Assembly: GCA_003132325.1 (NCBI GenBank)
Contig: PKXK01000116.1
Coordinates: 35,552-78,341, forward strand
DNA length: 42,790 nt
Reading direction: 5' to 3'
DNA from: Acidobacteriaceae bacterium
Lineage (GTDB): Bacteria; Acidobacteriota; Terriglobia; Terriglobales; Acidobacteriaceae
Positions 37,886 through 38,195 of this stretch are shown here, piece by piece. The first letter of the stretch is position 1. Each line of letters begins with the position of its first letter. The notes under the pieces are model-generated. The model was not told where the DNA came from. It was given only the letters and a program-made list of their open reading frames with translations, and did not search any database. The position numbers and the translations under genes are program-made.

Positions 37886-38195
37886 TGGTGCGGGCGGAGG
37901 GACTTGAACCCTCACGGGCTTGCGCCCAACGGATTTTCTTACCAACTGCGGCTTTCGCCGTCGCTGCTTGGCGTTTGTGGTCTGGACTATCCCTTCACCG
38001 TGGCCGAAGCTTTAGGTGCTGCCCGTCTAGTCTCTACACCTTCCCATTGGGACCGATTCGATCCATCCGGGCTTGGCTCGGGATTGCCATTTGACAGGTT
38101 TCCCCGAATTTGAGCAGTTCTGCATCGCTGGTTTCCCAGCGAGCACTCAAGTTTTCGTTTAAGTCCGGTGCGTCTGCCGATTTCGCCACGCCCGC
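37886..38195 (-). tRNA. tRNA-Leu(UAA) interrupted by a group I intron; exons 38161-38195 and 37886-37937, CCA encoded
   Basis: 87-nt spliced product GCGGGCGTGGCGAAATCGGCAGACGCACCGGACTT/AAAATCCGTTGGGCGCAAGCCCGTGAGGGTTCAAGTCCCTCCGCCCGCACCA folds as tRNA-Leu. Confidence 0.93.
37938..38160 (-). ncRNA. group I intron (IC3-like), 223 nt, no ORF
   Basis: P1 ACUU/GAGU with U.G at the splice site, P2 hairpin CGCUGG-GAAA-CCAGCG, AAUUCGGGGAAACC, AGACUAGACGGGCAGCACC, AAGGGAUAGUCCAGACC core blocks, terminal G. Confidence 0.9.

What the first reader, a model, noticed from the sequence alone, without database searches (positions are those of the whole stretch)
37886..38195. Group I intron-containing tRNA-Leu(UAA) carried on the island
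A complete tRNA-Leu is split in the anticodon loop, after U34 in the exon joined TT/AA, by a 223-nt ORF-less group I intron with recognisable core elements and terminal G. Such introns are well known in cyanobacterial and plastid tRNA-Leu(UAA); here the gene lies inside an accessory island next to an integrase.
Basis: partly seen in the sequence, partly recalled or inferred. Interest (0 to 1): 0.82.

Follow-up and report, generated by a model that had tools for sequence, protein, structure and literature searches.

The report
Mobile island carrying an intron-shielded replacement tRNA
A 63-kb mobile DNA island in a soil bacterium has cut the host's only leucine tRNA(UAA) gene in two and brought its own spare copy, and the self-splicing intron in that spare sits exactly where the island's integrase cuts, which would hide the spare from the island's own enzyme.

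Summary
Window 38195-37886(-) is a tRNA-Leu(UAA) with a 223-nt group I intron after U34 (Rfam RF00028, 53.6 bits, above cut-off). It is cargo of a 63.2-kb integrative mobilizable element inserted in the anticodon loop of the host's own tRNA-Leu(UAA): the 5' half is at window 39600-39562, the 3' half 63 kb away, sharing the core ACTTAAAA. No intact tRNA-Leu(UAA) was found in this genome; 21 of 23 same-genus genomes have one. The intron gene is therefore the replacement.

The module (split host tRNA, integrase, intron-bearing tRNA-Leu) recurs in at least four phyla: 39 of 39 elements that hit tRNA-Leu(UAA) and carry a tRNA have the intron. Elements hitting tRNA-Leu(CAA) mostly carry an intronless tRNA with a changed anticodon stem, or none. 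I infer that the intron hides the spare gene from the integrase. Gordonia phage Daredevil, published as lacking its rescue tRNA, carries an unannotated tRNA-Lys(UUU) split by a related intron inside its att core.

Known kind: tRNA-dependent integration. New: the intron. Relatives (~74% identity) sit unannotated in 625 of 5,426 complete E. coli genomes. Splicing and shielding are untested.

The parts
38161..38195 (-). 5' exon of carried tRNA-Leu(UAA), ends ...GGACTT (U34)
   Evidence: Alignment A1 of 40 homologues; spliced product called tRNA-Leu(taa) by ARAGORN
37938..38160 (-). 223-nt group I intron, inserted between U34 and A35, terminal G
   Evidence: RF00028 53.6 bits, above gathering score; 42 of 82 pairs with compensatory changes in 40 sequences
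37886..37937 (-). 3' exon of carried tRNA-Leu(UAA), with encoded CCA
38219..39442 (-). tyrosine integrase (about 405 aa) of the element; its reading frame ends 23 bp before the carried tRNA
   Evidence: Pfam Phage_int_SAM_5 above its cut-off; Phage_integrase only below cut-off, 20 bits; thousands of relatives, best 92% identical
39562..39600 (-). 5' half of the host's native tRNA-Leu(UAA), broken in the anticodon loop; attL. Core ACTTAAAA = 39569-39562
   Evidence: Matches native gene of same-genus genomes up to the anticodon loop; upstream flank colinear with relatives up to the first base of the tRNA
1..39569 (.). part of the 63.2-kb element inside the window; the rest runs to G000 contig C97:11891, where the 3' half of the native tRNA-Leu(UAA) lies (C97:11841-11892, minus; locus L086)
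   Evidence: Pattern search of own genome, att sequences
2232..4061 (-). ParB-like partition protein of the element
   Evidence: Pfam ParB_N, HTH_ParB
5734..9232 (+). IetA/IetS anti-phage defence pair carried by the element
   Evidence: PADLOC IetA 404.6 bits, IetS 1395.4 bits

Best explanation
The gene is the rescue tRNA of an integrative mobilizable element. The element's tyrosine integrase recombines within the 7-nt anticodon loop of the host's single tRNA-Leu(UAA) gene and splits it; only 8 bp are shared between element and target, so the gene is not rebuilt at either end (SHOWN by sequence). The host then depends on the element's own tRNA-Leu(UAA) to read UUA codons (INFERRED from the absence of another gene). 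A functional spare tRNA-Leu(UAA) necessarily resembles the integrase's target stem-loop. The group I intron sits inside that loop and parts the two half-sites by 223 bp, so the spare is not an attachment site as DNA; as RNA the intron splices itself out and restores the tRNA (INFERRED). Elements whose spare lacks the intron have mostly altered the anticodon stem instead.
For: Split halves and core. No other tRNA-Leu(UAA) in the genome. Same module in named genomes. Target UAA with a carried tRNA: intron 39/39; target CAA: intron 2/13. 25 of 28 hosts of intron-carrying elements have no other intact tRNA-Leu(UAA) by pattern search, and both hosts of UAA-hitting elements without a carried tRNA have an intact one. 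Inner stem (positions 29-31) of the spare equals that of the target in 26/35 intron-bearing pairs but 1/11 intronless pairs (Fisher 2e-4; 12/19 vs 1/9 unique pairs, p 0.016). Structure conserved with compensatory changes. Independent case: Gordonia phage Daredevil, tRNA-Lys(UUU), intron after U34, 16-bp identity of the spliced spare to its attP core, against 9 and 11 bp in the intronless Mollymur and Phrank.
Against: No splicing or integration assay. The exon stem is also constrained by pairing with the intron (P1) and by tRNA identity, which could by itself give the stem difference. With the tree taken into account the association of intron with UAA targets runs one way only (about 4:0 supported pairs) but is too small for significance (p 0.125), and the inner-stem association likewise (p 0.5). 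L137 carries an intronless tRNA-Leu(UAA) (stem changed). L130's intronless spare keeps the inner stem. L162 carries an intron in what is best read as tRNA-Leu(CAA), and L120 hits CAA but carries a UAA intron gene. Daredevil forms clear plaques (PMC10865867), so its spare may not work well.
Confidence: 0.7

Rival explanations
1. Rescue tRNA with a passive intron: the element once captured a tRNA-Leu(UAA) from an intron-bearing donor, and the intron persists only because it splices well and is hard to lose precisely.
For: tRNA-Leu(UAA) introns at this position are old in cyanobacteria and plastids (PMC4033280). Carried exons and introns evolve together with the integrase (Mantel r 0.37-0.50, p 1e-4, n=37), consistent with one capture and vertical passage.
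Against: Target type changes about 13 times on the integrase tree, yet no intronless tRNA-Leu(UAA) spare is seen among 39 elements with an identified UAA target; intronless spares with shifted stems occur in the same family. L162 looks like a copy whose guide sequence has shifted to suit tRNA-Leu(CAA). A related intron sits in a different isotype, tRNA-Lys(UUU), with a different integrase, again inside the att core.
Confidence: 0.25
2. An ordinary host intron-containing tRNA-Leu gene that an island happened to use as its integration site, with the normal rebuilding of the tRNA.
For: Islands usually enter tRNA genes and rebuild them (PMC4383910); the integrase is adjacent.
Against: The native gene of the genus is intronless and differs in sequence; it is present here as two halves 63 kb apart; the intron gene lies inside the element and neither junction rebuilds a tRNA.
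Confidence: 0.02
3. The spare tRNA mainly counters host anticodon nucleases or improves codon usage, and the intron is irrelevant or regulatory.
For: Proposed for phage tRNAs in general (discussed in PMC10865867).
Against: Isotype of the spare follows the isotype of the split target; most hosts have no other copy.
Confidence: 0.03

Closest known systems
tRNA-dependent lysogeny of actinobacteriophages (Guerrero-Bustamante and Hatfull 2024, PMC10865867)
   Different: Those spares are intronless. Here it is a plasmid-like integrative mobilizable element in Acidobacteriota and other phyla, and the spare is split by a group I intron at the strand-exchange site. Daredevil, listed there as having no tRNA, in fact has an intron-split one.
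Group I introns of cyanobacterial and plastid tRNA-Leu(UAA), and of alpha- and beta-proteobacterial tRNA-Arg and tRNA-Ile
   Same: Group I intron, about 200-300 nt, no ORF, in the anticodon loop; a U.G pair at the 5' splice site; related core sequence.
   Different: Those are described as host genes; here the gene belongs to a mobile element and stands next to its integrase.
Genomic islands in tRNA genes (Islander, PMC4383910)
   Same: Integrase-driven insertion in a tRNA gene; the anticodon-loop crossover sublocation is known.
   Different: In the classical case the island rebuilds the tRNA from its attP fragment; here it does not.
tmrB-like/aac(3)-II resistance region of enterobacterial plasmids
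   Same: Contains the same intron-bearing tRNA-Leu, 73-74% identical over the full length.
   Different: No integrase remnant was found by tblastn in the two copies examined; looks like a stranded fragment of such an element.

Membership tests
Group I intron (RF00028) | Conserved catalytic core above the curated covariance-model score | tested here: met
   53.6 bits against gathering 50, full-length match
Group I intron (RF00028) | U.G pair at the 5' splice site and terminal G | tested here: met
   U.G in 40/40; terminal G in 39/40 and in the window
Group I intron (RF00028) | Self-splicing in vitro | not testable with these tools
   Needs a transcript and GTP
tRNA-Leu(UAA) | Spliced exons fold as a complete tRNA-Leu with anticodon UAA | tested here: met
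   ARAGORN on spliced sequence
tRNA-dependent integration (as in tRNA-dependent lysogeny) | Host tRNA gene split at a short core and not rebuilt | tested here: met
   8-bp core ACTTAAAA; attL and attR sequences
[quoted passage not shown]
   Carried tRNA-Leu(UAA), window 38195-37886
tRNA-dependent integration (as in tRNA-dependent lysogeny) | Host has no other copy, so the carried gene is needed | tested here: met
   No intact copy in G000 (93.5% complete) while 21 of 23 same-genus genomes have one. Need itself not assayed
tRNA-dependent integration (as in tRNA-dependent lysogeny) | Element is a temperate phage | tested here: not met
   Relaxase, T4SS coupling protein, Rep3, ParA/ParB; no integrase relative in IMG/VR or phage records. 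Hence it works like it but is not lysogeny
Integrative mobilizable element | Integrase, relaxase and coupling protein within defined ends | tested here: met
   Relaxase L049:7999-10698, coupling protein L049:12065-14092, ends. Transfer not assayed; a full set of mating-pair genes was not looked for

The most novel reading that the evidence does not exclude
The group I intron acts as a DNA-level shield: it hides the element's essential spare tRNA gene from the element's own integrase by interrupting the attachment sequence, and removes itself at the RNA level. This would be a selective function for a bacterial group I intron, and would predict that other tRNA introns of bacteria mark present or past tRNA-hitting elements.
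Probability: 0.6. Interest if true: 0.92.

Novelty: new variant of a known kind. Interest (0 to 1): 0.86.

Why it matters
Bacterial group I introns are usually seen as neutral parasites. Here one has a testable job: to keep a gene functional as RNA while unrecognisable as DNA. It may help explain why tRNA introns are scattered among bacteria, since the mobile element, not the host, would carry them. It shows tRNA-dependent integration well outside phages, in at least four phyla. It also shows a blind spot: tRNA finders in their usual mode miss these genes, so a published phage was scored as lacking its tRNA, and 11.5% of complete E. coli genomes carry an unannotated intron-bearing tRNA-Leu beside a resistance region.

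Tried and rejected
Native intron-bearing host gene: rejected, the genus' own gene is intronless and present here only as halves. Empty-site proof on both flanks: only the 5' flank is colinear with relatives; beyond about 22 bp past the 3' half the flank maps elsewhere in relatives and a 2-N scaffold gap lies at C97:11658-11659, so that side is not proven. The element itself also holds a 2-N join at C97:23601-23602 and one at C97:35550-35551, just outside the window. Enlarging the sample through phylum-wide integrase search gave only 8 genomes. Viral contigs: integrase absent; one intron match on a 335-kb contig. Intact-looking tRNA-Leu(UAA) hits in Acidobacteriaceae hosts turned out to be att junctions lacking the 5' acceptor strand. 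Daredevil's intron scores below Rfam reporting and was found by homology and exon reading. Literature searches for an intron-bearing tRNA on integrative elements found nothing in the held open-access papers; subscription papers were not searchable.

Full report
OBSERVATION. On the minus strand, window 38195-37886 reads as a tRNA-Leu interrupted by a group I intron. Rfam's Intron_gpI model matches 38170-37967 at 53.6 bits, above its gathering score of 50. The boundaries set by aligning 40 homologues are: 5' exon 38195-38161, intron 38160-37938 (223 nt), 3' exon 37937-37886. The spliced 87-mer is called tRNA-Leu(UAA) by ARAGORN. All 40 aligned rows give tRNA-Leu(UAA) when joined at the same columns; for L162 the reading with a terminal G instead gives tRNA-Leu(CAA). 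The consensus fold has 82 pairs, 42 with compensatory changes, and the U.G pair at the 5' splice site is kept in all 40 rows.

THE HOST GENE IS SPLIT. The window lies on contig C97 of a 5.3-Mb, 305-contig assembly (93.5% complete, 6.65% contamination). Searching relatives with the gene exposed a second tRNA-Leu 5' half in the window. Genomes of the same genus carry an intronless tRNA-Leu(UAA), GCCCGGATGGCGAAACTGGCAGACGCACGGGACTTAAAATCCCGGG.... In the window this gene runs from 39600 to the anticodon loop and stops...GCACGGGACTTAAAA then ACCCTTTTAAAAATC. Its missing 3' half, AATCCCGGGTCC...TCCGGGCACCA, lies on the same contig and strand at C97:11841-11892, preceded by element sequence ...GACCGAAAATACTTAAAA. 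The two junctions share ACTTAAAA, that is position 31 plus the 7-nt anticodon loop. The insert is about 63.2 kb. Neither junction makes a tRNA.

THE CARRIED GENE IS THE REPLACEMENT. Among the tRNAs scored in this genome there are tRNA-Leu with CAG, CAA, UAG and GAG anticodons but none with UAA. A pattern for intact tRNA-Leu(UAA) finds one in 21 of the 23 other genomes of the genus (two in G001) and none in this one. Only a UAA-anticodon tRNA reads UUA codons (general knowledge), so the carried gene is presumably essential. That it is spliced in the cell follows from this but was not measured. The limit is completeness: a missing contig could hold another copy.

THE ELEMENT. Between the ends lie a MobA/VirD2-type relaxase, a type IV coupling protein, a Rep3 replication initiator, ParA-like and ParB-like proteins and ArdC, the IetA/IetS defence pair, an AbiJ-like and a Schlafen/AlbA-like protein, and efflux and FAD monooxygenase genes. 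It is best read as an integrative mobilizable element. Its integrase has no relatives in the phage records or in IMG/VR at the sensitivity used. The DNA between the ends holds two 2-N assembly joins (C97:23601-23602 and 35550-35551).

A FAMILY. One scan of GTDB species genomes gave 80 loci with relatives of the integrase, in Acidobacteriota, Pseudomonadota, Candidatus Binatota, Gemmatimonadota and Planctomycetota. In 38 the intron-bearing tRNA-Leu begins about 96-267 bp after the aligned end of the integrase on the same strand (three of these cut by a contig end, one more with a gap in its 5' exon); in three it lies further off on the other strand; in L155 it is elsewhere in the genome. About 160-245 bp before the integrase most loci show a host tRNA-Leu 5' half broken in the anticodon loop. 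Reading that half gives the target. Target UAA with a carried tRNA: intron in 39 of 39. Target CAA with a carried tRNA: intronless tRNA-Leu(CAA) in 11, intron in 2. Target CAA with no carried tRNA: 13, all Acidobacteriaceae-type, where tRNA-Leu(UAA) can still read UUG by wobble (general knowledge). Two UAA-hitting elements with no carried tRNA (L119, L126) sit in genomes that have an intact tRNA-Leu(UAA) elsewhere. Of 28 hosts of intron-carrying elements tested, 25 have no other intact copy; the exceptions are L125, L156 and an organelle-like tRNA cluster in L166's assembly.

WHY AN INTRON. A usable spare must look like the gene the integrase attacks. On the integrase's view (established for tyrosine integrases that use anticodon loops) the stem arms are binding half-sites and the loop is the exchange region. 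The intron lies inside the exchange region, so it parts the half-sites by more than 200 bp. If that is its function, intron-bearing spares may keep the target's stem and intronless spares may not. Positions 29-31 of spare and target agree in 26 of 35 intron-bearing pairs but in 1 of 11 intronless pairs (Fisher 2e-4; 12/19 against 1/9 counting unique pairs, p 0.016). The single intronless tRNA-Leu(UAA), L137, has a changed stem (CAGCA). Caveats: the stem also pairs with the intron's guide, and isotype differs between the groups. On the integrase tree the trait changes many times and supported independent pairs all go the expected way, but they are too few for significance.

AN INDEPENDENT CASE. 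Gordonia phage Daredevil is reported to integrate at tRNA-Lys(UUU) without rebuilding it and to lack a tRNA of its own (PMC10865867). A blast hit to the window's intron led to its integrase region. L218:2879-3189 is a tRNA-Lys(UUU) split after U34 by a 238-nt intron; the spliced 73-mer is called tRNA-Lys(ttt). Joined, its anticodon arm matches the attP-like core in 16 consecutive bases (CGGACTTTTAATCCGC). In the related phages Mollymur and Phrank, whose spares are intronless, the match is 9 and 11 bases. This is another integrase family and another isotype, with the intron again in the att core. The phage forms clear plaques, so its spare may be weak or recently damaged. The Daredevil intron did not reach the Rfam reporting limit.

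SPREAD INTO PATHOGEN PLASMIDS. The same gene, about 74% identical over 97-100% of its length, is in 1,265 of 72,556 plasmid records and 625 of 5,426 complete E. coli genomes, with no feature annotated under any listed match. In the copies inspected it stands beside an AAA-ATPase gene and aac(3)-II. In a Bradyrhizobium plasmid copy (81%) a decayed integrase C-terminus precedes it. These look like stranded pieces of such elements.

STATUS. Shown by sequence: the intron, the split host gene, the shared core, the family-wide arrangement, the lack of other copies in most hosts. Inferred: splicing in the cell, essentiality, shielding. Closest known system: tRNA-dependent lysogeny; this works like it in a non-phage element, with the intron as the new part.

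Noticed in passing
L218 (Gordonia phage Daredevil NC_048021.1) 2879-3189: Unannotated tRNA-Lys(UUU) split by a group I intron inside the att core; corrects the published statement that this phage lacks a rescue tRNA.
   Followed up: yes
L003, L005, L170, L171, L173 and about 1,260 further plasmid records; 625 complete E. coli genomes: Intron-bearing tRNA-Leu(UAA) beside an AAA-ATPase gene and aac(3)-II in the copies inspected, with no annotated feature under the listed matches.
   Followed up: partly
L002 (G000:C26:5545-5741): Second group I intron in the same assembly (51.2 bits), followed by what looks like the 3' half of a tRNA-fMet, with no recognisable 5' exon upstream.
   Followed up: partly
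L046 (G000:C80:6000-10200) and L047 (G000:C119:3400-4500): Dense arrays of 24 and 9 tRNA genes, the two arrays alike in order; a mobile element or a contaminant of the assembly.
   Followed up: no
L189 8339-8630 (IMG/VR 335-kb contig): Intron-bearing tRNA-Leu(UAA) on a very large viral contig (intron 50.8 bits).
   Followed up: partly
L102, L104-L110, L112, L114, L116-L118: Elements of the same integrase family that split tRNA-Leu(CAA) and carry no tRNA at all, apparently because that tRNA is dispensable.
   Followed up: partly
L162 7463-7783: Intron best read as inserted after U33 of a tRNA-Leu(CAA), with a changed guide sequence; the element's target is also CAA.
   Followed up: partly
L138, L140, L155, L163, L168 upstream of the integrase: att junctions holding decayed tRNA 3' halves, perhaps leftovers of an ancestral attP that rebuilt the tRNA.
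   Followed up: no
window 14047-15027 (-): A second tyrosine recombinase (326 aa, Pfam Phage_integrase) inside the element.
   Followed up: no
window 5734-9232 (+): IetA/IetS defence pair; the element's far end (L087:12188-13549) also encodes an AbiJ-like protein.
   Followed up: no
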